A program made the position numbers and the translations under genes. The notes below the pieces were generated by a model. The model worked only from the letters and a program-made list of their open reading frames with translations. It was not told where the DNA came from and ran no database searches. From the IMG/VR virus record IMGVR_UViG_3300045918_000470, positions 1-64,000 of that record: a stretch of DNA of 64,000 nt; one strand, 5' to 3'. Each line of letters opens with the position of its first letter. Within the stretch, counting starts at the first letter, position 1. Shown here one piece after another: positions 412 to 57,384 of this stretch. This DNA comes from a virus.

Positions 412-711
412 ATGATTAAAAAGTTAACTGATGAAAACATTGAATTATTTAGACCAGTTGCCGATGTTGTATTGGTTAAATGTGAGAAGAAGAAAAATAC
501 CACATCTAGTGGTATTATCTTAATAGAGCAGGAATCTGTTACTGAGCGTCCTGATAACGGCGTTGTAACCGTTATTGGTATTGAAGTAAAAGAAGTGCTT
601 GTAAACGATATTGTATATTTTACACAACAAACAGGGTATGATTTTTATGAGTCAGATGATTATCTATTTGTTCTAGTCCAAGAGTCCAAAATTCTTGGTC
701 TTATACGATAA
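412..711 (+). CDS. GroES-like co-chaperonin (T4 gp31-type role)
   Basis: This 99-aa protein reads as a complete GroES fold: RPVADVVLVKCEKK at the N-terminus, a short mobile-loop region with SSGIILIEQ, then GVVTVIG, VNDIVYFTQQ and a C-terminal LFVLVQESKILGLI. GroES proteins are about 95-100 aa, so the length fits. T4 gp31 replaces GroES so that the host GroEL can fold the major capsid protein, and a similar role is inferred. Its last 11 bases overlap the end of the convergent fibre gene. No strong Shine-Dalgarno is visible. Confidence 0.8.
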   Translation: MIKKLTDENIELFRPVADVVLVKCEKKKNTTSSGIILIEQESVTERPDNGVVTVIGIEVKEVLVNDIVYFTQQTGYDFYESDDYLFVLVQESKILGLIR

Positions 712-2068
712 TACGTGGTGTTGAAATACTTGTATTAGTGACACAACATAGACTTCCACAAAACCATAATGAACCATCTGATTTTTCAAAGATGGTTGAT
801 TCTTCTGTACATACTATATTGCTTGGATTTAAAATTCCTGGAATTTGTGTGAATACATATCTACTATTAAAATCACCCAATACTAATTGACCATTACCAT
901 TAGCACCTGTACCCCACAATGTTCCATCAGATTTTTCAATGATAACATGAGATCCACCTACAGATATTTTATTTGGATTAGTAAAAGAATTATCTAATTG
1001 TATAGGATCATAATAACCATTATTTGTATTCCCTTGTCCTAACTGCCCACTGTAATTGACGCCGCATCTCCAAACAGTTCCATCAGATTTTTCAAAATAA
1101 ACAAAATTGTTATTGCTTCCGTTTGTACTTAGATACAACTTATCGATTGATGGGACATCAGGCAATAATTGAAATGACGTAAATTGTCCTCGAATGGTTA
1201 ACTCACCATTTCCGTTTCCATAATAACTACAACCCCATACCGTACCATCAGATTTTTCAATATATAGATTATAAGTGTACATTTTAAATCCATGTGCATT
1301 ATTAAATGATGCATCTAACTGAACTGGTGTACTATAATTATTTCCATATGAACCCGTACCAAAATGTCCTGCCCAATTATTACCACATACCCATAAGGTA
1401 CCATCTGCTTTATGAAATATGGTAGATTGCTCTGAACTACTTATATCAATAATATTATCAAATGAACTATCAAATTTTGTTAATGTTGGTCTTGATACAA
1501 AATCACCCAATCCTAATTGACCATTGCTATTATCCCCACAACCCCACAATGTTCCATCAGATTTTTTTATAAAATAAAATCCAAAGCCACGATAAAGTTT
1601 AGCACCATCCTGCACGAATGGTTTAAAATATGTATTTGTACCAATTGAGGAATCGTAACCAAAAAACATGTAGACATTGTTAAACATAGCTGATGTACCA
1701 TTCCTATTACTAAACAACTCAGTAGGATTTAATATATCTGTCCATGCGCTTCCATTCCATTTTAAAACAGTTTTTGAAACATCATTTATAATCCAATATT
1801 TCATATTGGTAGGATTTGATGTTAAAATAGGTAATTCTGTACTATATATCGTATCTTCAGAAGAAATATTCTTTAGAAAATCCAACTGGATAAGGTTGTT
1901 TGAATAATCAGTACCTGGTAATGCAGGTACATCGGGATTTACATTGAATGTCTTTGTTCCACCTATTGATTGATCGCCACTAGGTAGAACACGTAATGAC
2001 AACTCGTTGAGATTATTGTCCATATCATCTGTAGTGAGTGGTGTAGTTGAATCTTTTCTTAATAACAT
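701..2068 (-). CDS. tail-fibre-type protein with six RCC1-like repeats
   Basis: A 455-aa protein. Residues 1-50 carry the shared fibre anchor module (MLLRKDSTTPLTTDDMDNNL...GGTKTFNVNP). From about residue 165 on there are six blocks of the form KSDGTLWGCG.N..GQLGLGD spaced about 50 residues apart, the pattern of RCC1 beta-propeller blades. A phage role as receptor- or surface-binding tip is inferred from the anchor and from the neighbouring fibre genes. The start is supported by GAGG before ATG. It is a paralogue of the next gene and of the one at 46842. No signal peptide or membrane segment is seen. Confidence 0.75.
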   Translation of the reverse strand: MLLRKDSTTPLTTDDMDNNLNELSLRVLPSGDQSIGGTKTFNVNPDVPALPGTDYSNNLIQLDFLKNISSEDTIYSTELPILTSNPTNMKYWIINDVSKTVLKWNGSAWTDILNPTELFSNRNGTSAMFNNVYMFFGYDSSIGTNTYFKPFVQDGAKLYRGFGFYFIKKSDGTLWGCGDNSNGQLGLGDFVSRPTLTKFDSSFDNIIDISSSEQSTIFHKADGTLWVCGNNWAGHFGTGSYGNNYSTPVQLDASFNNAHGFKMYTYNLYIEKSDGTVWGCSYYGNGNGELTIRGQFTSFQLLPDVPSIDKLYLSTNGSNNNFVYFEKSDGTVWRCGVNYSGQLGQGNTNNGYYDPIQLDNSFTNPNKISVGGSHVIIEKSDGTLWGTGANGNGQLVLGDFNSRYVFTQIPGILNPSNIVCTEESTIFEKSDGSLWFCGSLCCVTNTSISTPRIIV

Positions 2069-2075
2069 GTTACCT

Positions 2076-3428
2076 CTATAATAAAATACCTAAGGTTGAT
2101 CTTCCGTTCTCATCAGGTCCACCTAATTGACCTGAGTTTGTGTATCCACAAGACCATAATGAACCATCTGATTTTTCTATGAATAATGTACCATATCCAC
2201 ATTCCATCTTGTTTGGATTTAAAATTCCAGGAATCTGTGTAAATACATTTCTATCAAGAGTATCACCTAATCCCAACTGACCACCATTATAACCACAGGA
2301 CCATACTGAACCATCTGATTTTTCAACAAATGATGCATAATAACCACATGCAATCTTATTTGGATTGTTTATATCTGTAATTTGTTCAAATGATGTTCTA
2401 TCAAGAGTATCACCTAATCCTAACCCACCATTACCATTAGCACCTGTACCCCATACTGTTCCATCAGATTTTTCAATGAAGGTATGGGCATATCCACATG
2501 CTATTTTTCTTGCGTTATCAAAACCTATAATATGTGTGAAGTCATATACATCACTATTAGCATTCAACCCAAGTTGACCATTATTATCATTTCCAGCGCC
2601 CCAGACGGTACCATCAGTTTTCTGAATTATTGTATGTCTATAACCCATTGATATTTGTAAAGGAGGATCTATTGGTAATTGCGTAGGAGTATAACAATCA
2701 TATGATCCACCAGTTCCATATTGTCCATGATCATTATATCCACAACCCCAGAATGTTCCATCAGATTTTTCAACTAATAACCCATTATATCCACAATATA
2801 CATTAATTGGATTATCAAAATCTGGTATCGCTTGCATAAACCCACTACTAGGATATGTATATCCACAAGACCATATCGTGTTATCGTTCAATTCGATAAT
2901 AATAGATTCAGCAAATGAATTACCATAAACTTTTTTAATATTATCAACACCTAAATCAAAAAATCCATAGAAATTTGTAGTTGTAGTTGATGATAAAGAA
3001 TTATTATTATTATATCCTGAACCATATAATCTTCCACCTTGAAAAATATATGACATATCATATGATGGAATGAGTGAGGTAGGATTAATAAATTTTAACC
3101 ATGATCCATTATTAAATGTGAGCACTTTCTTAACCGTTTTTTCTACATATATAATTGCAGATAGATTATTAAGATTTGACTTTAAATCGAGTGGAAGTGT
3201 ATCTGTTGTAATTACATTGGAAGATAGTGTATCCTTAGCATATTTTGATGTACACAAGGATTGTGAATTATCTAAAATACCTGTGACAATGGGAGATGAT
3301 GTAAAAGTCAACTTTCCATAAATCGTCTGATCTGTACTAAGGTCAACACGATTTGATAGATCAATGAGATTATTATCCATCTCCTCTGTTGTTAAAGGTG
3401 AACCTTTATCTAATCTTAGTGTAATCAT
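2076..3428 (-). CDS. tail-fibre-type protein with six RCC1-like repeats (paralogue)
   Basis: A 450-aa paralogue of the preceding downstream gene, separated by 7 bases. The anchor module is MITLRLDKGSPLTTEEMDNN followed by ...GKLTFTSSPIV. A linker (about 60-170) precedes about six RCC1-like blades with the core KSDGTVWG.G.NGNG.LGLGD. The cores are more regular than in the 701-2068 gene, and several nucleotide words are shared between the two, suggesting duplication. The predicted product is a beta-propeller at the end of a fibre or baseplate appendage; the ligand is unknown. Confidence 0.75.
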   Translation of the reverse strand: MITLRLDKGSPLTTEEMDNNLIDLSNRVDLSTDQTIYGKLTFTSSPIVTGILDNSQSLCTSKYAKDTLSSNVITTDTLPLDLKSNLNNLSAIIYVEKTVKKVLTFNNGSWLKFINPTSLIPSYDMSYIFQGGRLYGSGYNNNNSLSSTTTTNFYGFFDLGVDNIKKVYGNSFAESIIIELNDNTIWSCGYTYPSSGFMQAIPDFDNPINVYCGYNGLLVEKSDGTFWGCGYNDHGQYGTGGSYDCYTPTQLPIDPPLQISMGYRHTIIQKTDGTVWGAGNDNNGQLGLNANSDVYDFTHIIGFDNARKIACGYAHTFIEKSDGTVWGTGANGNGGLGLGDTLDRTSFEQITDINNPNKIACGYYASFVEKSDGSVWSCGYNGGQLGLGDTLDRNVFTQIPGILNPNKMECGYGTLFIEKSDGSLWSCGYTNSGQLGGPDENGRSTLGILL

Positions 3429-5030: not shown

Positions 5031-5657
5031 TTATATTAGACTATCTAATTTATCGTTTAGTTCAGTAATTTTTTTGTCTTGTTCTTTAATTGCTTCAATC
5101 AATAATGCTACAAGATTTGAGTAACTAACTGAAAACATACCATCTGTATCCATAGACACAACTTCAGGAACAACCCGTGAAACGTCTTGAGCGATAAGAC
5201 CAATATTTTTATTAATCATCCCATCTTTCATATAACTAACACCATCAAGTAAAAGAACCTTATCAAGGGCATGTGTAATAGGTTCAATATATGATTTAAC
5301 CCGTCTATCAGATGTCTCGGTGATATTTCCTGAAACAATTAAGTTTGCATTGATAATAAGATCACCAGTCATAGTACCACCTGCAAGAGGCACCTTTGTA
5401 TTATCTTGTGCTGGGTGAGATGCAGCAAAATCTGTTAAAGCTGATTGAACAGTTGTTGCAACAAAATTAGCGTTAGCAGCCTTTGTTGATGTGTCACCGC
5501 TTGCTAGATTAGGAACGATTGGTGATGATGTAAATGTTTTTACACCTCCAATATTTTCGTTCCCTAGCAATGATACCTTTTTAGATATCTCCATAAAATT
5601 TCCATCTAACTCATCACGAGTCAATGGATCTGTTTTATCACGTCTTAATACTATCAT
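5031..5657 (-). CDS. tail fibre with S74 intramolecular chaperone domain
   Basis: A 208-aa protein with three parts: the anchor module (MIVLRRDKTDPLTRDELDGN, then GGVKTFTSSPIV), a short stalk (about 60-110, with GGTMTGDLIINANL), and a C-terminal Peptidase_S74 domain. The S74 signature is SDRRVKSYIEPI with Ser116 and Lys121, then NIGLIAQDV...VPEVV and SVSYSNLVALLIEAIKEQ. S74 domains trimerise phage fibres and then cleave themselves off just before the Ser. It is very short for such a fibre, so the mature product would be only about 115 residues. Confidence 0.75.
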   Translation of the reverse strand: MIVLRRDKTDPLTRDELDGNFMEISKKVSLLGNENIGGVKTFTSSPIVPNLASGDTSTKAANANFVATTVQSALTDFAASHPAQDNTKVPLAGGTMTGDLIINANLIVSGNITETSDRRVKSYIEPITHALDKVLLLDGVSYMKDGMINKNIGLIAQDVSRVVPEVVSMDTDGMFSVSYSNLVALLIEAIKEQDKKITELNDKLDSLI

Positions 5658-5668
5658 TTGTTATTCCT

Positions 5669-6445
5669 TTAGAAAAAATTAATTGTTATTCTATTTGTAG
5701 AAACATTAGATGTATATGCTTCTACATAATACATATCACCAGGAATAAGATTTGGATTAACACCATTTCCATTTGAATCAAATACATTACCACTAGTGCC
5801 CATTGCACCTTCAAACCAAAAATAACACCACGAACATCCAGGAGGACATATAGCTTTTAACCATAATGTTGGAGATGTATTAGCTATATGATCTAATGTA
5901 TAGAAAACATTAGGAGTAATTAAAATCGCATCTGCGAAACTTGAACCGGTCGCGGGGATATCCCACGAACCATCCCAATAATATATATCAAGAATTGACC
6001 TAGGAACATTTGATGAAACCTTAATCCATATTTTTCTTGAAGGAGATAAATCAGGATTTACTGGCGTAGTTGTGCTTACAGTGACATTACCTAATAATGA
6101 GGTAATGTCACTGCATGTTTTAGTATTGATAATCTTATTAGAAATATCAGAAACATCAGGGACTTTCATTGATGAAAACACAAAATCTCCTGTTATTTCT
6201 TGATCCATATTATAATTTAAACTACTAACTATAACATCATCGATTTTATCATTAACATTTTTTGTATTGATTAATTTATTTGAATTATCATTTAAAGGAA
6301 CATCATCACATTCAATACTCGTAAATGTTTTTATTCCGTTTACAATTTGATCTGTTGTGAGGGTTACACGATTTTCTAACTCGAGTAGATTATTATCCAT
6401 CTCGTTTGTTGATAATGGCGAACCTTTTTCTACACGTAAAATCAT
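5669..6445 (-). CDS. tail-fibre-type protein with shared anchor module
   Basis: A 258-aa protein. It starts with the anchor module (MILRVEKGSPLSTNEMDNN, then NGIKTFTSIEC) and has a second similar half-module (EITGDFVFSSMKVPDVSD). The linker PVNPDLSPSRKIWIKV links it to the other fibre genes. The last 90 residues look like a compact beta domain. Ligand or partner is unknown. Confidence 0.55.
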   Translation of the reverse strand: MILRVEKGSPLSTNEMDNNLLELENRVTLTTDQIVNGIKTFTSIECDDVPLNDNSNKLINTKNVNDKIDDVIVSSLNYNMDQEITGDFVFSSMKVPDVSDISNKIINTKTCSDITSLLGNVTVSTTTPVNPDLSPSRKIWIKVSSNVPRSILDIYYWDGSWDIPATGSSFADAILITPNVFYTLDHIANTSPTLWLKAICPPGCSWCYFWFEGAMGTSGNVFDSNGNGVNPNLIPGDMYYVEAYTSNVSTNRITINFF

Positions 6446-6454
6446 AGTTATTCC

Positions 6455-6811
6455 TTATACAATTAATGATCTAGCAGTTTTTCTCTTTTCAAGAATATCC
6501 GCATATTTTGTTATTAGATCATGAACATCCTCAGATGTACCTAAAACACTAGCTTCAGATATTTTAGTAACAACATAATCTGTTGATGCAAGATACAATG
6601 ATTGTTCTTGATTGATAGAATCTTGAACCTCTTTTGCAATCTGTTCAGGTGTAAGTGAAATATCTTCAACAACTTTTTTCTTTTTGTTATAAACCCTACC
6701 TAAATCATTAGTAGTTATAAGTTCATTATTAATCAAAATTCCTTGAAGAACTGATGGTTCGTATGAATGAACTGCGATTATTATATTTGATTTATCTATT
6801 TCTGCATACAT
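6455..6811 (-). CDS. small fibre-associated protein, possibly a tail fibre assembly protein
   Basis: A 118-aa protein with beta-type sequence in the first half (IIAVHSYEPSVLQGIL) and a helical second half containing LYLASTDYVVTKISEA and YADILEKRKTAR. A protein of the same length and plan sits between two fibre genes at 42724-43080. The motif (L.STD...) near a conserved Arg-rich helix is reminiscent of small phage tail-fibre assembly chaperones, but the match is weak. Confidence 0.4.
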   Translation of the reverse strand: MYAEIDKSNIIIAVHSYEPSVLQGILINNELITTNDLGRVYNKKKKVVEDISLTPEQIAKEVQDSINQEQSLYLASTDYVVTKISEASVLGTSEDVHDLITKYADILEKRKTARSLIV

Positions 6812-6820
6812 ATTTTTTCC

Positions 6821-7780
6821 TTATTTTGCCCAGATTGCAAGGTAGTTTACTGTTCCAAGTGCACGTTGCTCAGTATTTCCTGACTGTATTCGAATCTTGT
6901 CACCAAACACAGTATAATAACAATATATACTATCGTTTGCATCAACACCACCAGCAAAATTCGTTTGCTTCATTGAGGGAATAAATCCTACAAGATTTCC
7001 CATAGAATATCCTGATGGTGGATAGACATCAGCATAGTTCTGACTGCTTGAAGGACCTTGTCCTACTCCTGATTGAAGTGAGTTTAATGTCAATGTACCG
7101 TATGTCACCAACCAACCCATACCTCCCGCAGGTCCTTGTGGACCTTGTGGTCCTGAAGGACCTTGTGGGCCTTGTGGACCTGAAGCACCTGAACCCGCAG
7201 ATAATCCAGAAGTAACAGCTTTAACAAATGCCGTTGTTGCGACCTTTGTGGAATTATCATTAGTTGTTGGTGTAGGTGCTAACGGACTAACACTAAACGT
7301 CTTAACGCCTGAAATTGATTGGGCAGTGCTAAGCGTACAAAAATTAGTTTGATCAGCAGTTGGTAATTGGATATCTGTTGTACCATCAAATACTACACCA
7401 TTAATTTTTCGTCCTACTTTCAATGCGTTAGCCGTACCAGCATTTCCTGATATATCTGTAACTAATCCATCACTAAATGTTTTTGCACCTTTAAATGTTT
7501 GAGCAAAATCTGTAATCGTAACACCACTAAGTGTTTGTGCAGGTAATGTAATATCAGATGTACCATCAAATGTAACACCATTAATTTTACGTGGTGTGAA
7601 TAATCGTGTTGATGTAGTTGCATTTCCAGTAAGATTACCAATAATAGGTGAACTAAATGTTTTCGTACCTGCAATGGTTTCAGTTTCTGTCTTGCTTACT
7701 TTTGTAGTATCAAGATATACGAGATTATTGTCCATCTCATCATATGTTAATGCAGATCCTTTTGTTGATCGTAAAATCAT
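6821..7780 (-). CDS. tail fibre with collagen-like segment
   Basis: A 319-aa protein. Anchor module MILRSTKGSALTYDEMDNN is followed by two stalk repeats with GTKTFSS...GNLTGNA and RKINGVTFDGTSDITLP. A collagen-like run of Gly-Pro-Gln/Ser triplets (about residues 198-218) marks a trimeric stalk. The last 100 residues form the distal domain (GWLVTYGTLTLNS...). First gene of the minus-strand fibre block, with an AATAAATA box 26 bases upstream. Confidence 0.7.
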   Translation of the reverse strand: MILRSTKGSALTYDEMDNNLVYLDTTKVSKTETETIAGTKTFSSPIIGNLTGNATTSTRLFTPRKINGVTFDGTSDITLPAQTLSGVTITDFAQTFKGAKTFSDGLVTDISGNAGTANALKVGRKINGVVFDGTTDIQLPTADQTNFCTLSTAQSISGVKTFSVSPLAPTPTTNDNSTKVATTAFVKAVTSGLSAGSGASGPQGPQGPSGPQGPQGPAGGMGWLVTYGTLTLNSLQSGVGQGPSSSQNYADVYPPSGYSMGNLVGFIPSMKQTNFAGGVDANDSIYCYYTVFGDKIRIQSGNTEQRALGTVNYLAIWAK

Positions 7781-8399: not shown

Positions 8400-8948
8400 T
8401 TATTCGTACACGACATTATAAGTCGTACCATCAGCTTCGAAGCTGGAAACCCCAGCAACATCAAAATTAAACAGATTGTATTTAAGTCGGTTATTATAAC
8501 CCATAATCATATCATTTTCTGAATATAAGATATCCTTAAAATCATCTGATATATTGTTAAATGTTCGTCTTATATCAACTAACTTTCCTTCATTATCTCT
8601 AGTATAAACCCATTCAGTTTTATTCCCATCTTTTGTTTCATCAAATGATTTTATGAGATTATTCTCATAAACAAATCTGATTATTCTGCTATTCGATAAC
8701 AACCCTGTTAAAAGGTTGTTTGTGAAGGATGGTTGAAAAATTTCTTTAACCCCATCCTTCTCATAAATCATTCTACTAAACCCTTTAATTTCCATCTCAG
8801 TAAGAAATAATGATGTTATATTAAATCCCATATATTCCACTGGAAATGTAGGATATTTGTCATTAAACAAAAATGTAAGTGACTCAGTATCTGATGAGAT
8901 ACTCTTCAAGAATTTTTTAGTATTATAATTTATAACTTCAGTGATCAT
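8400..8948 (-). CDS. unknown protein of the YD-like four-gene cluster, 182 aa
   Basis: Last gene of a four-gene minus-strand cluster. It contains segments such as WVYTRDNEGKLVDIRRTF and FVYENNLIKSF, which resemble the Y-x-Y-D-x-x-G-x-L-x-x-I pattern of YD/Rhs repeats without being clear copies. The start codon overlaps the previous stop (ATGA, 4 bases), which indicates translational coupling. No catalytic motif, signal peptide or membrane segment is seen. Function unknown. Confidence 0.5.
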   Translation of the reverse strand: MITEVINYNTKKFLKSISSDTESLTFLFNDKYPTFPVEYMGFNITSLFLTEMEIKGFSRMIYEKDGVKEIFQPSFTNNLLTGLLSNSRIIRFVYENNLIKSFDETKDGNKTEWVYTRDNEGKLVDIRRTFNNISDDFKDILYSENDMIMGYNNRLKYNLFNFDVAGVSSFEADGTTYNVVYE

Positions 8949-10477
8949 AATGAACCTCCTTTAACAACTTCAAATAATCCTGATATCTTATAATCACCTA
9001 TATGTGTCGATATAGGTGAATCAACTAATGTATCACATGTAATGGGTTCGTTGTTTTTATTGTATGTAATGCTACCTACACGAGTCTTCCCAAAGTGATC
9101 AAATATATCATTCACCTGATTATTATCAGAAAGTTTAAACACCCATTTACCTAACTTATCTAAACCTGATGCAACATAATCATGATCAATTTTAAATGTT
9201 CTATCTTTCGGATTATATGGATTTCTGTTATAAACAAATGAGGCAAACCATTGGGATATTGCATCATTACCAATATAATATGTTGATATTTGTGTTATTT
9301 TATTCTTGGTATAAAAGTAACGAATTGATCCTACTTTTTCCATTGTTGGGTAGAACAACATATCAAGACTTCGAATCTTCCCACGTGTATAGTTTGGTAT
9401 GAATCTGTAATACATTAAACCATTGAATTCAAAATCCATTGAGTCAATATATGTCTGCTCACCATTCATATCTAGATTAAACTTACATAGATTTATTACA
9501 CTACTATCAGGTGCAATCACACCTAGTATTGGAAATCTGTTTACATTTACTTTTGTTATATCATAATTGTAAGTAAGTTTTGCGGGAATACCATCGATTA
9601 ATATATCTACAGTTGTTATTCGTACAGGCTCATTAAATTTATAAACCACTTGTGATTTATCTGCATATTCAAGTCTATTTTTGAATACTTTAAACCATAA
9701 AGATTTTGTAGTAGTTGTCTTATAAACCGCTACTAATGAACCAACAGAATTATATTGCATATCAATTCTTTTGTATGGGGTACCAGTACATAAGATATAT
9801 TGAAGTTTATCTCCTGCATATTTAAATGTAAATGTTGCATCAATAATATATTTCAATCGCCCTAATGAATCCTTACGAAAACTATACTCATCCATTCTAT
9901 CAAGTAATCCATTAACATAAGCGAAATTTACTTTCCATTGTTCTGCAGGTGTGTTTGTATTAGTTCCTAAAACTGATTGAATTTTTCCATCGTAATAGTA
10001 AGGAACAATTTGAATTGATGTGTCATAATTTGAAATACCATTACACTGTGCTTGAGTTCCCATACAATCAATACTATCAAATCCAATCTCTCTAAGAATA
10101 CTAACTGGTGCACGATTTACTTCAGGAACAGATTTATCATTATCAAAATAATATTCAATCTTCTTGAGTACATTGAATTCTGATATTTTTGCATAGGAAT
10201 CTGGTCGTTTCCAAAATTCATTGTATTGTGAATTATCTGCTTGTTTTACCACATATTCTTCACGAGTAGTATGATCAATTATTTTTTGTACTTCGTCGTT
10301 AACATCACGTGAAAATGTGATCAATTTTTCCATGGGTTCAGTGCTTGTGTCTTTAACTGTTACAAGTTTACCCGTGTTATAGAAAAGATCATATGTTACA
10401 GGTGTGTTTGCATTATCAGCAATCGCAACCTGTGTATATTCAACATCTTTAACGAATGTATATACTCTAGTGCTCAT
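8945..10477 (-). CDS. unknown YD/Rhs-like beta-repeat protein, 510 aa
   Basis: A 510-aa protein made of repeated short beta-type strands, for example YSFRKDSLGRLKYIIDATF, MQYNSVGSLVAVYKT and SITYNKNNEPITCDT. These resemble degenerate YD repeats, which in Rhs proteins build a beta cage. It lacks an obvious toxin domain or the PxxxxDPxGL motif of true Rhs proteins. Its stop shares a base with the next start and the previous gene's stop overlaps its own start (TAATG), so the cluster is coupled. A virion surface role is only an inference. Confidence 0.5.
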   Translation of the reverse strand: MSTRVYTFVKDVEYTQVAIADNANTPVTYDLFYNTGKLVTVKDTSTEPMEKLITFSRDVNDEVQKIIDHTTREEYVVKQADNSQYNEFWKRPDSYAKISEFNVLKKIEYYFDNDKSVPEVNRAPVSILREIGFDSIDCMGTQAQCNGISNYDTSIQIVPYYYDGKIQSVLGTNTNTPAEQWKVNFAYVNGLLDRMDEYSFRKDSLGRLKYIIDATFTFKYAGDKLQYILCTGTPYKRIDMQYNSVGSLVAVYKTTTTKSLWFKVFKNRLEYADKSQVVYKFNEPVRITTVDILIDGIPAKLTYNYDITKVNVNRFPILGVIAPDSSVINLCKFNLDMNGEQTYIDSMDFEFNGLMYYRFIPNYTRGKIRSLDMLFYPTMEKVGSIRYFYTKNKITQISTYYIGNDAISQWFASFVYNRNPYNPKDRTFKIDHDYVASGLDKLGKWVFKLSDNNQVNDIFDHFGKTRVGSITYNKNNEPITCDTLVDSPISTHIGDYKISGLFEVVKGGSL

Positions 10478-11475
10478 TAATACTCCTCAGATATTGAAAT
10501 AATTGTTCCATTGTTGTCATAAGTATATGAAAATCTACTTATTTTATTACCATCGCCATCTGTATAATCGACGTGATTAATTTTTGTAAGATCTGTTACT
10601 GTATTTACAATTCCGCCATAATACATAATATACATATTTTTTCTTTTAGTTTTATCGTATGTAAAAATCTCAATGTTTACTATATACGGTTGTAATACAT
10701 CATTAGGTTTCATAAAGTATTGCAATGGACCTTTCTCACCAAGGTAAAATGAATTGACAAGAACCTCATCAGGATTATAGTTAATCTTAACGTATTCATC
10801 GTTCTCTATACACCACTGTTCATCACCATAAACAACCACAGGTGCAAATGATGGTTCAGTTAACCACCCAGTTGTTCCGTATAGATTATTAACCTCTAAG
10901 GTTTCATTTCGTAGTTTTATATCATCGGCAAAATCTACTTCAACATACCCCTCATCAGTAAACAATGTATCATAATAATATTGATCAACATTCTCAAATG
11001 TAGTATCATCCCAGTAATCACTTAGAACGAATCCACGATCTGTAAGTAAATGTCCAGATTTAGAAATTCCTTGTTTTACCTCGTAATATTTTCCCTCTAA
11101 TGTGTATCCACGAACCAATTGACCGTCATACATGATATCTAGATGATTTGTGAGATTAGTAACACCTCTCATCTGATATATTCCATCAAGGATATTATCT
11201 GAATTAAAACTTAGGAATTTTTTATCGTTATTAGTAATACCTTCTTTTGAATCGAAATCTTTTGAAAGTATATTATCAAAGATATTGTATTCTTGTGCAA
11301 GACTTAATTGTGTTCCTTCAAGAATACGATATTTTCTGTTATATACATCAGTATCCATATAATTAAGATTACAATATGTTTCAAGAACATATAGTTCGTT
11401 TTCAGAACGATAACTCGATAGGACTCCGGATTCAAATAAATCCTTTGCCGTTGTTAATGTGTCATTATATCCCAT
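10477..11475 (-). CDS. unknown YD-like protein, 332 aa
   Basis: The start at 11475 is chosen because AGGAG lies 7 bases upstream, just inside the end of the preceding gene; an earlier in-frame ATG at 11505 has no such site. The C-terminus (SRFSYTYDNNGTIISISEEY) is a good YD-type repeat. The remainder is acidic and Tyr-rich. No known domain recognised. It belongs to the same coupled cluster. Confidence 0.5.
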   Translation of the reverse strand: MGYNDTLTTAKDLFESGVLSSYRSENELYVLETYCNLNYMDTDVYNRKYRILEGTQLSLAQEYNIFDNILSKDFDSKEGITNNDKKFLSFNSDNILDGIYQMRGVTNLTNHLDIMYDGQLVRGYTLEGKYYEVKQGISKSGHLLTDRGFVLSDYWDDTTFENVDQYYYDTLFTDEGYVEVDFADDIKLRNETLEVNNLYGTTGWLTEPSFAPVVVYGDEQWCIENDEYVKINYNPDEVLVNSFYLGEKGPLQYFMKPNDVLQPYIVNIEIFTYDKTKRKNMYIMYYGGIVNTVTDLTKINHVDYTDGDGNKISRFSYTYDNNGTIISISEEY

Positions 11476-11476
11476 A

Positions 11477-13810
11477 TTATGCTCCTGGGCACAAGATATA
11501 AACATCTTGTTCTATTGCGTATTCAATATCAACATAAAGATCAGTACAACCAGTATCTAAAAGACATGAATCTACAAATCTTGCATCTTTTGGAAGATAA
11601 TCAATATCAACATAAAGATCAGTACAACCTGGTAAGCACATATCGATATATTTTTCCATGTATAGATTTTCAAAATAGAAATCTTGACAACCAGTTACAA
11701 CAGGCGCACACATTATTACATATAACGTATCAATTGTACAATCATCTTCCCAATATGCAGAATTACATTCATCCTCAGGACATGGTTCCCTCATAGGAGA
11801 CTGATATGCATTTAACGCTTGTTCTAAATAATTATCACTTACAAAATATCCAAGCTCGTGATAACCATCGTCTGCACGTGCAATGGTCGTCGCATATGTA
11901 TTTTCTGAGTTGAAATAACCCGTTCTTGTAACATATGGTTTTGCATATTTTAACTCATATACATCATTTGGCATCTCATAAGCAAATGATTCTTTTCCTA
12001 ATGTATCTAGGTATTCAATTCTTTTTAGGAATGTTCCTACTTTAACATCTGATATTTTATTGTATATATCAACGTAATAAGGTTTTCCATTATCTGCGTA
12101 GTATGGGATTACAAAATAATCATTCCCATTATCTTTTACTATAAGATATTTAAGATACGGTTGACATCCTGCACCATCAGCAAAATTCCAATCCCCATTA
12201 AATGTAAAAAATCTATGAACCTTTGGCGCATCGTAATCATAAACAAAATCAATAGAATTATATTCATCTTTGTATATAAGTTCAGTTGCGATTGGTTCAT
12301 CAACATCTGAGGTCCCTGAGATTACATTACTGCAATGAGTTGTACTAAAGAATTTTGTCTCGATTGTGAGGTTATCCTCAAAGAACAATGCATTTGGAAT
12401 ACCATGATCATAACACCCATGGGTCCATTTTACAGATGGTTTATTCAATGCAATATATCGATTAGCACCATCAAACATTTTACTTACAGTTTTATATTTT
12501 AAGTCAATGTTAAACCCACCCTTAAGGTGATCTACAAATCTGTCAATTCTTCCACTTGTTAATCGGTCAACAGTATAGTGTTTTTCAAGTAACTCATCTG
12601 AGTTAAATTTCATTACCTTATACAATTTTCTGTTTATGTCATAATAAAAATTTAAAACACCGCCATATACTAGTTCCGTATCGTCATCAGTTATTACACT
12701 AAATATCAGACTATCAATTTTATAATCAGGTGTGTAAACAGGATGAGCCTTTTTCACAAGAAACCCAATCTCATTGTAATACCTTATCTCGGTGATATAT
12801 TTGTGATTTGTTTCAAACGCAAGATTGATCAACCCATAATCTTCAAAATCTGTAAACGAATTGATATAATGTCTTTTCTCGTCTACATCAATTTCTATTC
12901 TTCGTGAATATTCCTTACTTACACCGTAATATTGTTCACACAAGATTGATTGATTAAGATTTGAAACGGGTATAATAAATGGGAACTCTGCAAAGTAAAA
13001 CACGTTACATGAAACTATTGTATTCCATTCAAGAACCTTAGATATTACATGAGCTCTTCCATGGGTATCTACACTTAATCTCATATACTGATAATTCTCT
13101 TTATCGAATCCTGATAGATATCTAGTTTTATCTTGATATACGTAAACTAATTTTTGATAATCAATAATATCATTTGAAGAATTATAATATGTTTGTTGCA
13201 TATGTACATCATATACTTTATCTTTAACATCATTGTTTACACTAATAATTTTTCTTACTAATGCATACGTCACACCAGATACGCTTGAGAATTCATTAAC
13301 AATTATTGTTTCTTTATCTGCATCCTGAATATATTCAAAAGTCCATTTTGAAACTACTACGTTTGTTTCAAATGCTCGATAATGAAGTTCTTGAATTCTT
13401 AATTTATCATTGATATCTTCATATAGAGGTGTATATTCTCCTATAACACTTCCATTATAAAACTTACGAATTTTTGATATGAAACAAAGATCAATTGTAG
13501 GATCAAAACTTGCATAATATAACATATTTCTAAAGTTTGTAAATGGTCTAATCTTACTTTTAGAGGAATCATATTCGAACACCAATCCAATATCAAGGGT
13601 TCCTTCTTTACAGATTTCATAATGAACATTATTACAATTTCTTACCTCAGGAATTGGTTTAATCTTTTCAAGGGTTGTATCTTTATGTACAGGTGGTATT
13701 AGAGCATATGGTTTACTGGGAATTCCGAAGACACGTTGAATATTTGAAGAAGCATTGAGATCAATGAACTCATACTCAAATACATTAACACTTGGACTTA
13801 AAATTGTCAT
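11477..13810 (-). CDS. large unknown protein heading the YD-like cluster, 777 aa
   Basis: The first 15 residues (MTILSPSVNVFEYEF) look like the N-terminal arm of tail sheath proteins, but the rest does not resemble a sheath. The main body is Tyr/Asp-rich with many strand-turn segments such as VYVYQDKTRYLSGFDKEN. The last 130 residues are rich in cysteine, with two copies of a 26-residue unit containing GCTDLYVDI, encoded by a 29-bp direct repeat (11523-11551 and 11601-11629). First gene of the minus cluster. Function unknown; a secreted or virion surface protein is possible. Confidence 0.55.
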   Translation of the reverse strand: MTILSPSVNVFEYEFIDLNASSNIQRVFGIPSKPYALIPPVHKDTTLEKIKPIPEVRNCNNVHYEICKEGTLDIGLVFEYDSSKSKIRPFTNFRNMLYYASFDPTIDLCFISKIRKFYNGSVIGEYTPLYEDINDKLRIQELHYRAFETNVVVSKWTFEYIQDADKETIIVNEFSSVSGVTYALVRKIISVNNDVKDKVYDVHMQQTYYNSSNDIIDYQKLVYVYQDKTRYLSGFDKENYQYMRLSVDTHGRAHVISKVLEWNTIVSCNVFYFAEFPFIIPVSNLNQSILCEQYYGVSKEYSRRIEIDVDEKRHYINSFTDFEDYGLINLAFETNHKYITEIRYYNEIGFLVKKAHPVYTPDYKIDSLIFSVITDDDTELVYGGVLNFYYDINRKLYKVMKFNSDELLEKHYTVDRLTSGRIDRFVDHLKGGFNIDLKYKTVSKMFDGANRYIALNKPSVKWTHGCYDHGIPNALFFEDNLTIETKFFSTTHCSNVISGTSDVDEPIATELIYKDEYNSIDFVYDYDAPKVHRFFTFNGDWNFADGAGCQPYLKYLIVKDNGNDYFVIPYYADNGKPYYVDIYNKISDVKVGTFLKRIEYLDTLGKESFAYEMPNDVYELKYAKPYVTRTGYFNSENTYATTIARADDGYHELGYFVSDNYLEQALNAYQSPMREPCPEDECNSAYWEDDCTIDTLYVIMCAPVVTGCQDFYFENLYMEKYIDMCLPGCTDLYVDIDYLPKDARFVDSCLLDTGCTDLYVDIEYAIEQDVYILCPGA

Positions 13811-13865: not shown

Positions 13866-13890
13866 TTTCAATTATTTATAAAGGATTAGA

Positions 13891-16550: not shown

Positions 16551-18107
16551 ATGGCATTGATTTTAAGAAGAGATAAAGGGGCAGTATTAACTCATAACGA
16601 GGTTGATGATAACTTTGTTTATGTTGATACTACAGCAGTAAAATTAACTACAAACCAAACCATTGCAGGTGTCAAAACATTTTCAAGCACAATCGTTGGG
16701 TCTGTATCAGGCAATGCAGGTACAGTAACAAATGGTGTTTATATTGTTGGAAACCAATCTATTGATGGTACAAAAACATTCACATCTACAGTTGTTGCAA
16801 ATATCTCAGGAAATTCTGAGGCTGTAACAAATGGTGTTTACACAATCGGTAATCAAACTATCGGTGGTACAAAAACTTTCTCAAGCACTGTTGTTGGTTC
16901 TATCACAGGAAATTCTGAGACCGTAACAAACGGTGTTTACTTACTTGGTAATCAAACAATTGCAGGTGTTAAAACATTCAGTTCAACAATTGTAGGTTCT
17001 GTTTCAGGAAATTGTGGAACTGTAACAAACGGTGTTTACACAATCGGAGATCAAGTAATTGCAGGTATTAAGACGTTTTCAAGCACTATTATTGGTTCTA
17101 TCACAGGAAATTCTGAGACCGTAACAAACGGTGTTTATAATGTTGGAGATCAAACAATTGCAGGTGTTAAAACATTCAGTTCAACAATTGTAGGTTCAAT
17201 CAATGGTAACTCTGCAACTGTAACAAACGGTGTTTATAATGTTGGAGATCAGACAATTGCAGGAAACAAGTCATTCTCGGCAACAATTATTGGTTCAATC
17301 AATGGAAATGCAGCAACGGTAACTGGTGGGGTTTATACATCAGGAAATCAAACAATTGCCGGTGTTAAAACATTTAGCTCAACAATTGCAGGTGATATTA
17401 CCGGTAATGCTAATACTGTTACAAATGGGTTGTATTCTAATGGTTTATATACTGATCCTACATGGTTAACATTATCAAAAACAAAAGTTGGTTTGGGTAA
17501 TGCTGATAACACTGCAGATACATCTAAGAATGTTCTTTCAGCAACGAAACTAACAACAGCACGTACAATCAATGGAATTAGTTTTGACGGTACATCAAAT
17601 ATCAACATTGAAAGTAGATTAGGAACGGCAGTTGCTTCTGCGGGTACAACTACAATCGGTACTGCTGGTATCGGTGAAGTAATGCATATCACTGGAACAA
17701 CTAACATTACATCATTCGGTGTCTCAACAACCGGAACAATGAGAACAATCATATTTGATGGGGCAGTTACGGTAACATATAATGTAACATCATTGATCAT
17801 TCCAGGAGCATCAGATATTGTGACAACTGCGGGTGACATTATGGTTCTTGTGTGTGAAAATGGCGCATCAGGATATTGGAGAGTTGCAAACTATCTTCCT
17901 GCATCAGGAAACGTAACATCTGGTACAACACAAACAATCTCGGGTGCTAAGACATTTACTAGCGATGTTATACAAACTCCTTCAGCGGTGGCGACACCTG
18001 CGGTAAATGGTCAGATGATGTTTGAACATACAAGTGACACAACATTAACTGTTAAGGTTAAAGGTTCAGATGGCGTTGTAAGATCAGTTGCATTAACATT
18101 AGCGTAA
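16551..18107 (+). CDS. long repetitive tail fibre protein
   Basis: A 518-aa protein. After the anchor module (MALILRRDKGAVLTHNEVDD) it has about nine tandem units of about 30 residues with the core GNQTIAGVKTFSSTIVGSI and TVTNGVY, followed by a junction (LSKTKVGLGNADNTADTSK) that is widespread in phage fibres, and a C-terminal beta domain ending in TLTVKVKGSDGVVRSVAL. The repeats form an extended trimeric stalk. It stands apart from the other fibre genes and is followed by a hairpin. Confidence 0.7.
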   Translation: MALILRRDKGAVLTHNEVDDNFVYVDTTAVKLTTNQTIAGVKTFSSTIVGSVSGNAGTVTNGVYIVGNQSIDGTKTFTSTVVANISGNSEAVTNGVYTIGNQTIGGTKTFSSTVVGSITGNSETVTNGVYLLGNQTIAGVKTFSSTIVGSVSGNCGTVTNGVYTIGDQVIAGIKTFSSTIIGSITGNSETVTNGVYNVGDQTIAGVKTFSSTIVGSINGNSATVTNGVYNVGDQTIAGNKSFSATIIGSINGNAATVTGGVYTSGNQTIAGVKTFSSTIAGDITGNANTVTNGLYSNGLYTDPTWLTLSKTKVGLGNADNTADTSKNVLSATKLTTARTINGISFDGTSNINIESRLGTAVASAGTTTIGTAGIGEVMHITGTTNITSFGVSTTGTMRTIIFDGAVTVTYNVTSLIIPGASDIVTTAGDIMVLVCENGASGYWRVANYLPASGNVTSGTTQTISGAKTFTSDVIQTPSAVATPAVNGQMMFEHTSDTTLTVKVKGSDGVVRSVALTLA

Positions 18108-29486: not shown

Positions 29487-32400
29487 ATGGCAACAGCTAA
29501 ATTTGTAACAACTATAACTAATCATGTAAGTTCAGGCACTATGTCGGGTGCATCATTGAGTAAACTTGTAGATTTAAAAAATGCTGCACAAGCAAGTTGT
29601 ATGGCAGAGACAAAATTTCTAACAGATGCATTGAAAGCATATAAACAACTTACACATTTACTTAACGCAACATCATGTACTGTTCATTTAAGTACATTTG
29701 ATTTTGCCGGTCGTGTTGCAATGGGAGATTTTCTTAATGATACATTAATGGAAGAATTTGGTACAAATCCCGATAAAGCTTTATCAGGAGCAGTGAATCT
29801 TATTAATTCAGCATGTTCATCAATCAATGGAATTATGGGTATGATTAACATGCTCAAAGATTTCCTTCTTGCATTATATCGCCTAATGGATTTTCTAAAA
29901 GGATTAGGAGATTTTGGTATTGAATGTCATTTTGGCGAGTTAGAATTATTGTTAGGTCAAACTAATAAACCCACACCAGGGGTATTTTCCTTCCCAGTTT
30001 CAATACAGACACATTTTGATAACTCAGCAAGAATTTTGAGTAAAATGTATGGTAATGCATCATCAGGTGTCCCATCTGCATTATCATATTCAGAAGCACA
30101 ATTATCACGAGATCCAGTTCTTGCAATAGATTCTGTTAGTGGTATCGAAATTACATCAGCAATGATACTACAAAATAGTCTTGTCAATCCTAATAGCCTA
30201 GTGTATGATCCTGATATTTCATTCATGTATGATAAAGGATTAAGATTTGGTCAGGCACTTGTAGATATGCAATCACGTGTAGCAAATGGGTTGATCATGG
30301 ATGCAGGAGATATTGCTACTGCTGAATTAATGTCTATTGGGACGTGTAGTATAGATGGATATTCTGATAAAACATCATGTGAGACGGCAGGAGGAGTATG
30401 GACTGTAATATCAACCCTTGCAAAAACAACGGCAAAAATTCCTAGAACATTACAAATATCTGCAATGAGTGAATTATTCGATACAACGGTTGAGTCAAAG
30501 GATAATGTTCTAAATACATCTACCGGTATTACATACATCAGATCATATGAAACATTGCCACTAACTATTGATCTAATGTCCGTGCAAGGAGTTGCAGGTT
30601 CTGTACCACCATACCATTACACTTTATCAATTCAAAGCAAAAATGCTGATAGTAGTTATATATCATTACAGTCGATTCCAGGTCTAGAGCAAAAATTAGT
30701 TACCGTCACAAGCGATTATAATTCTTCCTTATTAAAATTATTAAATGCTAAAAATAGTCTTGCGGATGCTATTACTAAAGCATCAGATGTTGGTACACCT
30801 CCATCCGTACTTTCAACATATACATCTTTAATGAATTCATATGATTCTAAATCAGGAAACATTACAGACAAATACAATATCGTTAATAATAACCCAAATA
30901 AAATTGGACAGTTAAAATGGTTAATTGATTTAGGAAACCAAGCAATCACAAATGGCGTAGATCATGCAACCCTAAATAACGGAACAACTGGATTAGTTAC
31001 GTTGACATTTCCTATAAAGAGTTTTGATACAACACCAGGTGCATTTAATGATATAACTAATTCAAATGAATTTATAAGCACAGATATCACAAATGTAAAT
31101 TCATATCTTAATCAGATTCAACAGTTTTATAATGAGAGTAATGTATTAGATAATTTTATAACTGATCTTTCATCAAAAACTAGAGATCTAATATTAGTGT
31201 ATAATGATTTTCAATCAAAGAATGCATTGTCAGATCAGATATATTATGGTGTACATAAACCATATGTGTTTCCAGGAAAAGGAACAATCAGAACCGGTGA
31301 TGCTAAAGTTTATGTATCATTTTCTAAACCTCATACTGAAATTCTAAATGATATTCCAGATAATATTACATTGAATTTGTTTCATGGTGATGTATTTTAT
31401 GATAATACTAATGATAATGGTATAACGGTAAAAATGTATTTGAGAGTGTTGGGATCTGTTCCTAATTATTATAATTATAAATGGGTAGATATCGGGTCAA
31501 CTGTTTCTATTGATAAAGATATATCAGGAACACCAATTCCAATAACTATTACAATAGATCCTACTGTGTTTGCATCAATTGATAGTAAGACAAATATATA
31601 TACATCAGGTGATGGTATAGATCCTTCATTGAATTGGAGTGTGTATAAATCTTGGATTAATATCGGGGATGTTTGGTTAGATTCAAGTAATATAACCATA
31701 GGTCTTTTACAAAAAGTATATATTTACGATTCAGGATTAGAATCGTTTAAATGGACAGCATTACTATCAAATAATGCGCCGGCACTAGTTCCTAATAATA
31801 TTACAACGTTAGAAGATTCAATAATCACTGGTAATCTATTATCTTCAGCTTTTGATATGGAGAATGATGTAATCACATTAGTCTCCGTAACCGTTGCAGG
31901 TGTTGAAACAAATGCGATAAATGGATCAAATGTAAATGTAACCATATCTAACTCGTTAGGTATTTTCACATTAATAAGTGATACGGGTGATTATATCTTT
32001 ACTCCTACAGCAAATAAGAATACCAATACAACGTTTAGTTTTACTTATAAAGCAAAGGATTCTAAAGGTGCTGTTTCAACGTCAATATTCTCAATCGCAA
32101 TAACACCTGTAAATGACCCACCTCAGGTTTCAGGACCGATAGATGTAATATATCTAACATCCCAAGTGGCAACAACAATTGATTTATTATCAAATACAAC
32201 TGATATAGACCTCGATATTATAAGTATTGACGATTTAGGAAAGGTTTCAGGTAATGATTCAAATTTTGTTAATTATAACAAATATACACGAGTATTAGAA
32301 TTTAATCCAACATATTTCGTGGATATTTTAAAACGTGATGAGATTAATAATGTATTATTGACATACTCAGTAACAGATAATAAATCAGCGAAAGTACCAA

Positions 32401-33386
32401 CATCAGCATCAATTAAATTTAAAGGTATTAATCATCCACCGATAATATCAGGCCCAATTTCAAAACTATTTCTGGTAACAGATGCAGTGTCAGATGTTCA
32501 TCTTGATCAAAATGCAACAGATTTTGATGGGGATATTTTGCGTGTTGATTCCGTTGGGTTCACAGTAACAGGTGATGAAGTAGGAATTACGAGGGTTCTT
32601 TCATCGAATAAGGTAACAGTCAATCCATCATTATATAGTTCATTGAAGCGTGATCAGACATCCGTTGTAACATATTCATATCATCTATTAGATGCTATTA
32701 ATGCACAATCATCAGGAACAACGGCAACTATAACTATTAAAGGTATTAATCATCCACCGATAGTTTCCAACGATATTATAGTTAATAAAATAACTACAGA
32801 TGCATCATTTGATATTATGTTAGATCAAAATGCAACAGATTTTGATGGTGATATACTTTCCATTGATCCATTAGATTTTAATGCAACTGGAAATGAAAAT
32901 GGTATTACAAGAGTTCTTGCATCAAATAAGGTAACAGTTACGCCACAACAATATCATAATATATTAAAACGTGATGAAACGTTAGATATTGTTTATACAT
33001 ATTATGTACTTGATTCAGTATCAGTTCGTTCTAATATGGCAACGACAAAAGTAACATTAAAAGGTGTTAATCACCCACCTGTTATTTCAGGTAATATAAC
33101 AGTAAATAAATTGACTTCAGATACCACATTTGATATTATGTTAGATCAATTCGCTACAGATTTTGATGGTGATATACTTTCTGTTGACCCATTAGATTTT
33201 AATGCAACTGGAAATGAAACTGGTATTACTAGGGTTCTTTCATCGAATAAGGTAACAGTCAATCCTTCATTATATACCTTGGCAACAGGTGTACACAGTG
33301 TTATCACATATACCTATTATGTACTCGATGAAGTTTCCGCACGCTCAAATCTTGCTACGCTTACAATTACAATTACTGGTGCATAA
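29487..33386 (+). CDS. large virion protein with cadherin-like tandem repeats
   Basis: A 1299-aa protein between the spike and the PAAR tip. Residues 1-130 are helical and contain several cysteines. The middle is long and mixed. From about residue 765 five domains of about 100 residues follow, each starting NHPPI.SG.I or NDPPQVSGP and containing DFDGDILSVD, the calcium-binding style of cadherin/VCBS-type repeats. Repeats 2-5 share long nucleotide words, so they arose by duplication. A rod-like adhesin or extended baseplate protein is inferred. Confidence 0.6.
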   Translation: MATAKFVTTITNHVSSGTMSGASLSKLVDLKNAAQASCMAETKFLTDALKAYKQLTHLLNATSCTVHLSTFDFAGRVAMGDFLNDTLMEEFGTNPDKALSGAVNLINSACSSINGIMGMINMLKDFLLALYRLMDFLKGLGDFGIECHFGELELLLGQTNKPTPGVFSFPVSIQTHFDNSARILSKMYGNASSGVPSALSYSEAQLSRDPVLAIDSVSGIEITSAMILQNSLVNPNSLVYDPDISFMYDKGLRFGQALVDMQSRVANGLIMDAGDIATAELMSIGTCSIDGYSDKTSCETAGGVWTVISTLAKTTAKIPRTLQISAMSELFDTTVESKDNVLNTSTGITYIRSYETLPLTIDLMSVQGVAGSVPPYHYTLSIQSKNADSSYISLQSIPGLEQKLVTVTSDYNSSLLKLLNAKNSLADAITKASDVGTPPSVLSTYTSLMNSYDSKSGNITDKYNIVNNNPNKIGQLKWLIDLGNQAITNGVDHATLNNGTTGLVTLTFPIKSFDTTPGAFNDITNSNEFISTDITNVNSYLNQIQQFYNESNVLDNFITDLSSKTRDLILVYNDFQSKNALSDQIYYGVHKPYVFPGKGTIRTGDAKVYVSFSKPHTEILNDIPDNITLNLFHGDVFYDNTNDNGITVKMYLRVLGSVPNYYNYKWVDIGSTVSIDKDISGTPIPITITIDPTVFASIDSKTNIYTSGDGIDPSLNWSVYKSWINIGDVWLDSSNITIGLLQKVYIYDSGLESFKWTALLSNNAPALVPNNITTLEDSIITGNLLSSAFDMENDVITLVSVTVAGVETNAINGSNVNVTISNSLGIFTLISDTGDYIFTPTANKNTNTTFSFTYKAKDSKGAVSTSIFSIAITPVNDPPQVSGPIDVIYLTSQVATTIDLLSNTTDIDLDIISIDDLGKVSGNDSNFVNYNKYTRVLEFNPTYFVDILKRDEINNVLLTYSVTDNKSAKVPTSASIKFKGINHPPIISGPISKLFLVTDAVSDVHLDQNATDFDGDILRVDSVGFTVTGDEVGITRVLSSNKVTVNPSLYSSLKRDQTSVVTYSYHLLDAINAQSSGTTATITIKGINHPPIVSNDIIVNKITTDASFDIMLDQNATDFDGDILSIDPLDFNATGNENGITRVLASNKVTVTPQQYHNILKRDETLDIVYTYYVLDSVSVRSNMATTKVTLKGVNHPPVISGNITVNKLTSDTTFDIMLDQFATDFDGDILSVDPLDFNATGNETGITRVLSSNKVTVNPSLYTLATGVHSVITYTYYVLDEVSARSNLATLTITITGA

Positions 33387-36677: not shown

Positions 36678-38870
36678 ATGAAAAGAGATTTTGAAATTAT
36701 TTTAAACGCATTAGTTCCTGAACACATTAAGGAGAACAATCCAGTTATCTCTGAGTTGTTCAGGATCTTCCTAGAATTTATTGATGAAACATCATACTCT
36801 AAAATCTCAAATATCGCAAATCTCGTCACAAGCATCCAAGAGGACGAGGCTGAAGATAAATCATCATTCAGTTTTCAACCAGTAAATAAAAGACAAAACA
36901 TTGAATTAAAGATGGCGTTTGTAAATCTATTCACTACAAATATAAATCATTTTTTTGATACCATTAAAAATGATCGAGAAATTGATTCAAAACTAACAAG
37001 CTATGCAAAGTTATTAGGATTAGAAAAAACTGATCTATATGATATGAGTAAATTAAATATCAATATCAATGAGGAAATCATTGCATGTTCTAAACCTTTT
37101 GCACAGACAAAAGGTACAAATATTCCTTTTGATTTTTTATCAAATCTATTAGAAAATGAAAATCTTGACCCAGGTATTACCCCTATAGGTGGAATACGTG
37201 TTAAAGACCATAGAGATCCTGAAACCGACGAACTCGTACCATGCTCTTATGAGGTAGAATCATCACTACATAATGTTGTGTTTAATCGTGCTATAAGACC
37301 AGTGGTTCATCCCGTCGGTTTCAATGTAATATACACTCGTGTGTTAAAATTATTAATGGAAGATCACTTCAATTTAAAAATTGAAAATTATGGGTTTGTA
37401 GTTACTGTAAGACAGCGCAACGGAAAAACATATTCTTGGAAAGATGAACTTGATGCAAGTGGTAATGTTAAAAATCAACTCATTAAAACATTCAAATCAG
37501 ATCTTAATGAATATGGAATAGAAGAATTAGATATTAGATTTATGACAGGAGAACGATTATATCGGACTGTAAATGGTGATCTTGTTTATTATGATAAAGA
37601 ATCTATTCCACACAAATGGTCAAAAAAATTCTATGAATTAGATTACACGTTTAAAAAACGTGTAACTGTCTTGACAAAAGACGCACAAATGGCGATACAT
37701 ACATCATATATAGACGATAATTATGATGTAGTTTATGCAGTTCATAATGGTATTGTAACAATATCACATGTACCCGTTCGTGATTATAATGTGAGGGTAG
37801 ATCATATTGACGATAATAGTTATCTTGAAGATATAAAAGATTATTTCGAACCCGATCTAACAGATCACAAAACAACGTTCCTTCCTGAGGATTTTCCAGA
37901 ACCAGAGGAAAATAGTATATTCATGGAAGAAACAATTTGGATGAATAATTCAAAAGTTTTCGGTGAAAATGGCGATCAATTCGCATACCAACTTACTGAT
38001 GCATTAAATGAATATTCACCCAAATTTTCTGAGGATGAAGAGCTGTTTTGGAACAATACAGATTATTATGTAAATCATTTTATTAAGATATTAAGTGATC
38101 TTGAAATTGACCTTGCATATAATCAGGATATGTACGATACATATGCAACACGTGAAGGAAGACGACGAATTGGTGCATGGAAAGGTTTCAGCGATCCTAG
38201 ACCACAATCAATGTGTAGGGACGTTCCATTACTTACTGGTGACATACTAATCGCAAAAATCCGTGAGTTAAAAAACATTGTAACCCAGGACAAAACAGAT
38301 ATTCTTAATATCACAGAAAGATTGAATAAGACATTAAGTTCACGTGAGGAATTTTACTTTATTATTCAAGGTGAGGATCTAATAGATTCATATATCGTTG
38401 AAGATATAACTACAATATCTGATGAAAAAAATATGACTGATACTGTTATAACAAATGATCAGATGGGAAGAACAACAATCTACATCAATATGGATAATGC
38501 TGATGGTATGGCAGTAGGTAGTGTTGGTATTGGTCAAAAACCACTTGGTTATGAGGATGCAATGGATACAGATGATGGTGCAGGTATATACACATATATT
38601 CTAACAAACGGTATCTATGTTCTTAACGATTACATTGGGTTTATTGGTGACGTATTAACACTTGATTCAGAATTGATAAATGATTACAGAACAAATATTG
38701 CAGAATTAAATATTCTTATTTCAGACAAAGAAGCAGAAATTCTTACAGTAGTAGGAATATGGGGTGTGTACACAAGAACACATCTTCGTCTTGAACGTGA
38801 CGATCTTATAAAAACAAGATCAGCATTCCAAAAAGAGTTAGATATAATTCTTAATAAATACAACAATTAA
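36678..38870 (+). CDS. baseplate wedge protein (gp7-like position)
   Basis: A 730-aa protein directly after gp6, the position of T4 gp7 (1032 aa). The N-terminus VPEHIKENNPVISELFRIFL and EFIDETSYSKISN resembles tail protein I/gp7 starts. The middle is beta-rich (KRVTVLTKDAQMAIHTSYID). A helical C-terminus ends it. No strong motif is known to me, so the call rests on position and the N-terminus. Confidence 0.5.
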   Translation: MKRDFEIILNALVPEHIKENNPVISELFRIFLEFIDETSYSKISNIANLVTSIQEDEAEDKSSFSFQPVNKRQNIELKMAFVNLFTTNINHFFDTIKNDREIDSKLTSYAKLLGLEKTDLYDMSKLNININEEIIACSKPFAQTKGTNIPFDFLSNLLENENLDPGITPIGGIRVKDHRDPETDELVPCSYEVESSLHNVVFNRAIRPVVHPVGFNVIYTRVLKLLMEDHFNLKIENYGFVVTVRQRNGKTYSWKDELDASGNVKNQLIKTFKSDLNEYGIEELDIRFMTGERLYRTVNGDLVYYDKESIPHKWSKKFYELDYTFKKRVTVLTKDAQMAIHTSYIDDNYDVVYAVHNGIVTISHVPVRDYNVRVDHIDDNSYLEDIKDYFEPDLTDHKTTFLPEDFPEPEENSIFMEETIWMNNSKVFGENGDQFAYQLTDALNEYSPKFSEDEELFWNNTDYYVNHFIKILSDLEIDLAYNQDMYDTYATREGRRRIGAWKGFSDPRPQSMCRDVPLLTGDILIAKIRELKNIVTQDKTDILNITERLNKTLSSREEFYFIIQGEDLIDSYIVEDITTISDEKNMTDTVITNDQMGRTTIYINMDNADGMAVGSVGIGQKPLGYEDAMDTDDGAGIYTYILTNGIYVLNDYIGFIGDVLTLDSELINDYRTNIAELNILISDKEAEILTVVGIWGVYTRTHLRLERDDLIKTRSAFQKELDIILNKYNN

Positions 38871-51281: not shown

Positions 51282-51294
51282 AATAATCCTTTTG

Positions 51295-51302
51295 TATAAA
51301 TA
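51295..51302 (+). promoter_or_regulatory. late-promoter-like box TATAAATA
   Basis: Exact octamer in the divergent region between terL and the portal gene, 36 bases before the portal start. Confidence 0.55.
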
Positions 51303-51337
51303 ATACAATAACAATTATTTATATTAAAGGAAACTTA

Positions 51338-57356: not shown

Positions 57357-57384
57357 TTAATACTTAATACTTAATACTTAATAC
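57357..57384. repeat. heptamer tandem repeat (TTAATAC)x4
   Basis: Four perfect copies cover the stop codon of the Kelch-type fibre gene and the gap before the next gene's start. Copy changes would alter the spacing between the two genes but hardly the protein end. Confidence 0.8.

What the first reader, a model, noticed from the sequence alone, without database searches (positions are those of the whole stretch)
8400..13810. Unknown four-gene, translationally coupled cluster of YD/Rhs-like proteins
Four minus-strand genes (about 182, 510, 332 and 777 aa) overlap or touch at ATGA/TAATG junctions. All are rich in Tyr/Asp turns resembling degenerate YD repeats, yet show no toxin core, enzyme motif or fibre anchor. 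They occupy 5.4 kb in a late-gene region. They could form a shell or appendage not known from T4. This is the largest block in the window that I cannot relate to any family.
Basis: partly seen in the sequence, partly recalled or inferred. Interest (0 to 1): 0.7.

Follow-up and report, generated by a model that had tools for sequence, protein, structure and literature searches.

The report
Late tail-appendage cluster, Rhs-like fold
A T4-like phage carries a conserved four-gene late operon for proteins with no known sequence relatives; low-confidence models resemble the folded-hairpin shells of Rhs and teneurin proteins, and they most likely build an unrecognised tail part that helps the phage grip its host.

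Summary
Four minus-strand genes (A 777, B 332, C 510, D 182 aa) are real: all four occur in the same order in two other phage lineages (about 72% and 52% identity for A), each start has a ribosome-binding site, and dN/dS is 0.13-0.32. They match nothing in Pfam, PHROGs or NCBIfam; tblastn of A, B and C finds nothing in 50,697 phage records. Tyr is enriched in A-C, but a formal YD motif clearly exceeds composition only in C. AlphaFold models of A and C (shallow alignments, low confidence) are beta-hairpin meanders. The best PDB matches (20 of 20 for C, E 5e-7 to 9e-4; 12 of 12 for A) are Rhs, teneurin or Tc-BC proteins. A T4-type late promoter lies 63 nt upstream of A; that motif also marks tube, hub, gp25, portal and fibre genes. 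A begins with a segment resembling the sheath arm (about 5e-4 by chance) and ends in Cys-rich repeats whose number differs between relatives (1, 4, 5).

Best reading: a late-expressed tail or baseplate appendage of YD-like beta-hairpin proteins. By sequence it is not Rhs: no YD profile match, no DPxG core, no PAAR, no toxin. The fold link rests on weak models. Attachment site and function are inferred.

The parts
13873..13880 (-). T4-type late promoter TATAAATA(AT), 63 nt upstream of gene A
   Evidence: TATAAATA 8 of 11 and ATAAATAAT 9 of 14 sites lie in the 4.4% of positions just upstream of a same-strand gene; conserved in L002 (TATAAATAAT) and L004 (GATAAATAAT)
11477..13810 (-). gene A, 777 aa: sheath-arm-like N terminus, long beta-hairpin region (best predicted part 110-220), Cys-rich C-terminal repeats
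13757..13810 (-). N-terminal segment of A, MTILSPSVNVFEYEFIDL, resembling the tail-sheath gp18 arm
   Evidence: 93 of 200,000 random N termini score as high; best of the window's proteins
11480..11785 (-). A residues 676-777: four degenerate Cys-rich units of about 25 aa; 1 unit in L004, 5 in L002
   Evidence: self-alignment E 1e-5; 75-nt tandem array, 4.9 copies in L002
10477..11475 (-). gene B, 332 aa, unknown; ends in a YD-like hairpin (YTYDNNGTIISI)
8945..10477 (-). gene C, 510 aa, predicted beta-hairpin meander; best PDB matches all Rhs/teneurin/Tc-BC
8400..8948 (-). gene D, 182 aa, unknown; ATGA overlap with C

Best explanation
The four genes form one late transcription unit of a T4-like phage that probably infects a Campylobacterota host. 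They encode virion proteins made largely of antiparallel beta-hairpins of the YD/Rhs type. Most likely A docks on the contractile tail or baseplate through its sheath-arm-like N terminus by beta-strand addition, B-D assemble with it, and the variable Cys-rich end of A faces outward, so that the complex acts as a tail or baseplate appendage in adsorption. Shown: gene structure, conservation, late promoter, Cys-repeat variation, lack of known families. Supported but weak: beta-hairpin/Rhs-like fold, sheath-arm resemblance. Inferred: virion location, mutual assembly, adsorption role.
For: Conserved block and order in all relatives found. Late promoter motif shared with tube, fibre 6821, hub, PAAR, gp25 and portal genes and conserved upstream of A. 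dN/dS 0.13-0.32, like the neighbouring fibre gene (0.20-0.25) and above Dda (0.06). The next transcription unit on the same strand is a tail-fibre operon. Models of A and C are beta-hairpin meanders, and the two models independently pick Rhs/teneurin/Tc-BC in the PDB. Sheath-arm resemblance of A. Tandem Cys-rich repeats varying in number. Precedent: a YD-repeat gene in the tail module of Bacillus cereus siphophages (PMC9128512); the sheath N terminus joins its neighbour by strand addition (PMC10457771).
Against: Models rest on three sequences (mean pLDDT 31 and 47.5), TM-scores are below 0.2 against the Rhs group, and no control fold was run, so any beta meander might select Rhs; OspA, DUF3836 and MORN proteins also appear. 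The sheath-arm match lacks the invariant Gly of SPG and was noticed before it was tested. No sequence match to any structural protein. No proteomics. The late motif also precedes the homing endonuclease ORF (39552), so late expression does not prove a virion part.
Confidence: 0.5

Rival explanations
1. A-D are late virion proteins placed elsewhere (head or neck decoration, whisker-like or internal proteins), with no docking on sheath or baseplate; the sheath-arm resemblance is chance.
For: The late promoter does not tell the site; the arm match scores 10 bits against 32-39 for true sheaths, which were in the training set; no recognisable family.
Against: Adjacent to a tail-fibre operon and near tail genes in all relatives; the arm signature is at the same distance from the start codon as in T4 and kept in all three lineages.
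Confidence: 0.27
2. The four chains close into an Rhs/Tc-BC-like hollow cocoon that carries a cargo.
For: Fold matches of A and C; the summed length of 1801 aa is in the range of a TcB-TcC pair.
Against: No YD profile match, no DPxG core motif, no toxin, no PAAR or spike link; models too poor to show a closed shell.
Confidence: 0.08
3. Late non-virion proteins, for example assembly factors or superinfection-exclusion proteins.
For: No virion evidence at hand; no membrane segment in the hydropathy scan, so soluble proteins.
Against: Large beta-rich proteins with variable Cys-rich repeats are unusual for chaperones; location among tail genes.
Confidence: 0.12

Closest known systems
Rhs / YD-repeat proteins (T6SS Rhs cores such as 7PQ5, 8QJD; teneurins; Tc BC component)
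   Same: Predicted beta-hairpin meander; Tyr/Asp-rich turns in C; top PDB matches for A and C
   Different: No YD/Rhs sequence profile match, no DPxG core, no toxin, no PAAR; split over four genes in a phage late operon
YD-repeat protein of Bacillus cereus-group siphophages (gene order C, PMC9128512)
   Same: YD-type protein next to tail genes, proposed role in adsorption
   Different: Single gene in a siphophage; sequence relation not tested separately
T4-like tail sheath gp18
   Same: N-terminal LSPxVxVxE segment at the same distance from the start
   Different: The rest of A has no sheath domain
Small tail-fibre family with the MILRxxKGSALTYDEMDNNL N terminus (window 6821, 16551 and others)
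   Same: Neighbouring tail genes, similar rate of change
   Different: A-D lack that N-terminal segment

Membership tests
Rhs / YD-repeat family | Match to the RHS/YD repeat profiles | tested here: not met
   no hit to any such family at E up to 10; PDB profile searches also without a meaningful hit
Rhs / YD-repeat family | Spiral beta-hairpin shell fold | tested here: inconclusive
   consistent matches, low-confidence models, low TM-score
Rhs / YD-repeat family | Core end motif DPxG with autocleavage and C-terminal toxin | tested here: not met
   no DPxG in any of 12 proteins; C has only NPYNxxDRT; no toxin family
Tail sheath | N-terminal arm | tested here: inconclusive
   chance about 5e-4; invariant Gly missing
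Tail sheath | Conserved sheath domains (PF04984, phrog_23) | tested here: not met
T4-type late genes | TATAAATA-type promoter upstream | tested here: met
Virion proteins | Presence in purified particles | not testable with these tools
   needs proteomics

The most novel reading that the evidence does not exclude
A phage-borne multi-chain Rhs/Tc-BC-like beta-hairpin shell, split over four genes and hung on a contractile T4-like tail by a borrowed sheath arm.
Probability: 0.08. Interest if true: 0.8.

Novelty: new variant of a known kind. Interest (0 to 1): 0.45.

Why it matters
If confirmed, it would put YD/Rhs-type hairpin architecture on the tail of T4-like phages, link phage tails with Rhs effectors mounted on related contractile machines, and name an adsorption device for phages of a little-studied host group. 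The Cys-repeat number variation gives a direct test for receptor adaptation.

Tried and rejected
A as the missing sheath protein itself: no sheath domain in A, and no sheath gene found in the window record or five related records; these records are fragments, and in Campylobacter phage NCTC12673 gp18 lies far from gp19, so absence means little. Homology among A, B, C: profile comparisons not significant (weak internal duplication in C only, E about 0.005). Prophage or plasmid copies: none for A in genome contigs, none for C in plasmids. Wider viral relatives with alignment queries and with neighbouring genes: only the same two lineages. Chance PDB sequence hits ignored.

Full report
Setting. 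The window is 64 kb of a 77.8-kb virus record with T4-type tail tube, baseplate, portal, protease and capsid genes. The portal is nearest to Vibrio phage Va1 and its kin and to Campylobacter phages at 38-40%. The record also holds a short cytochrome-c-like ORF (L008), which by its look suggests a Campylobacterota host (inference).

Observation. Four minus-strand genes A-D lie at 13810-8400. B starts at 11475, not at the mechanical 11505. Each start has an SD-like sequence; B/C and C/D overlap in all three lineages, A/B only touches in the window. Two other lineages carry all four genes in the same order and between the same neighbours, at 72% and 52% identity for A, 73/48 for B, 65/41 for C and 62/30 for D. 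dN/dS is 0.13-0.32, against 0.06 for Dda and 0.20-0.25 for the neighbouring fibre gene.

Families. No significant match in Pfam, PHROGs or NCBIfam, none for A, B or C by tblastn in 50,697 phage records, none for A in a pattern-seeded scan of 84,980 species genomes, none in PDB sequences.

YD character. Tyr is about doubled in A-C, but YD motifs exceed composition clearly only in C. AlphaFold models of A (mean pLDDT 31, pTM 0.30; residues 110-220 at about 50-75) and C (47.5, 0.40; residues 341-420 at about 67-86) are long antiparallel hairpin meanders. Foldseek against the PDB ranks Rhs, teneurin and Tc-BC proteins in places 1-12 for A (E 2.5e-4 to 8.5e-3) and 1-20 for C (E 5e-7 to 9e-4). TM-scores are low, and OspA, DUF3836 and MORN proteins follow, so the safe statement is a beta-hairpin meander of the Rhs/OspA/MORN type. 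By sequence and core motifs it is not Rhs.

Expression. TATAAATA lies 63 nt upstream of A. In the window 8 of 11 TATAAATA and 9 of 14 ATAAATAAT sites lie in the 4.4% of positions just upstream of a same-strand gene (binomial P 2e-9 and 1e-9; the same zones read on the wrong strand hold 3 and 3), among them the tube, fibre 6821, hub, PAAR, gp25 and portal genes. The binomial does not correct for AT-rich intergenic DNA; the wrong-strand count is the fairer control.

Anchoring and tip. A begins MTILSPSVNVFEYE; the T4 and Va1 sheaths begin with MTLLSPGIELKE and MAEMLSPGVFVTE. A position matrix from six sheaths gives A 10 bits; 93 of 200,000 random N termini reach that, and the next window protein scores 1. 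The sheath N terminus normally joins its neighbour by strand addition (PMC10457771). A ends in Cys-rich units: 1 in L004, 4 in the window, 5 in L002, where they form a 75-nt tandem array.

Conclusion. A late, conserved, unrecognised virion-type cluster with Rhs-like hairpin character, most likely a tail or baseplate appendage. Location and role are inferred.

Noticed in passing
48257-51314: The terminase large subunit is spread over two overlapping minus-strand frames (50304-51314 ATPase part; 48257-50326 with a terminase match only at residues 485-632 and a large unexplained stretch before it); an intein, insertion or frameshift is possible.
   Followed up: partly
701-3428 and 46842-48260: Three proteins match phage RCC1-type families and share the short N-terminal segment of the fibre genes, so RCC1-like propellers may be fibre tips.
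   Followed up: partly
5031-7780, 16551-18107, 57371-59413: A shared N-terminal segment (MILRxxKGSALTYDEMDNNL-like) recurs in many fibre genes, as if several fibres use one docking site.
   Followed up: partly
L008:10063-10338 and L008:13220-13795: Cytochrome c-like ORF (SKCIACH motif) and a QueC-like ORF in the rest of the record; possible auxiliary genes and a host clue.
   Followed up: no
window, whole: (N)ATAAATA(AT) is strongly placed upstream of genes and looks like this phage's late promoter.
   Followed up: yes
29487-33386 and 36678-38870: Proteins of 1299 and 730 aa in the baseplate region have no PHROG match.
   Followed up: no
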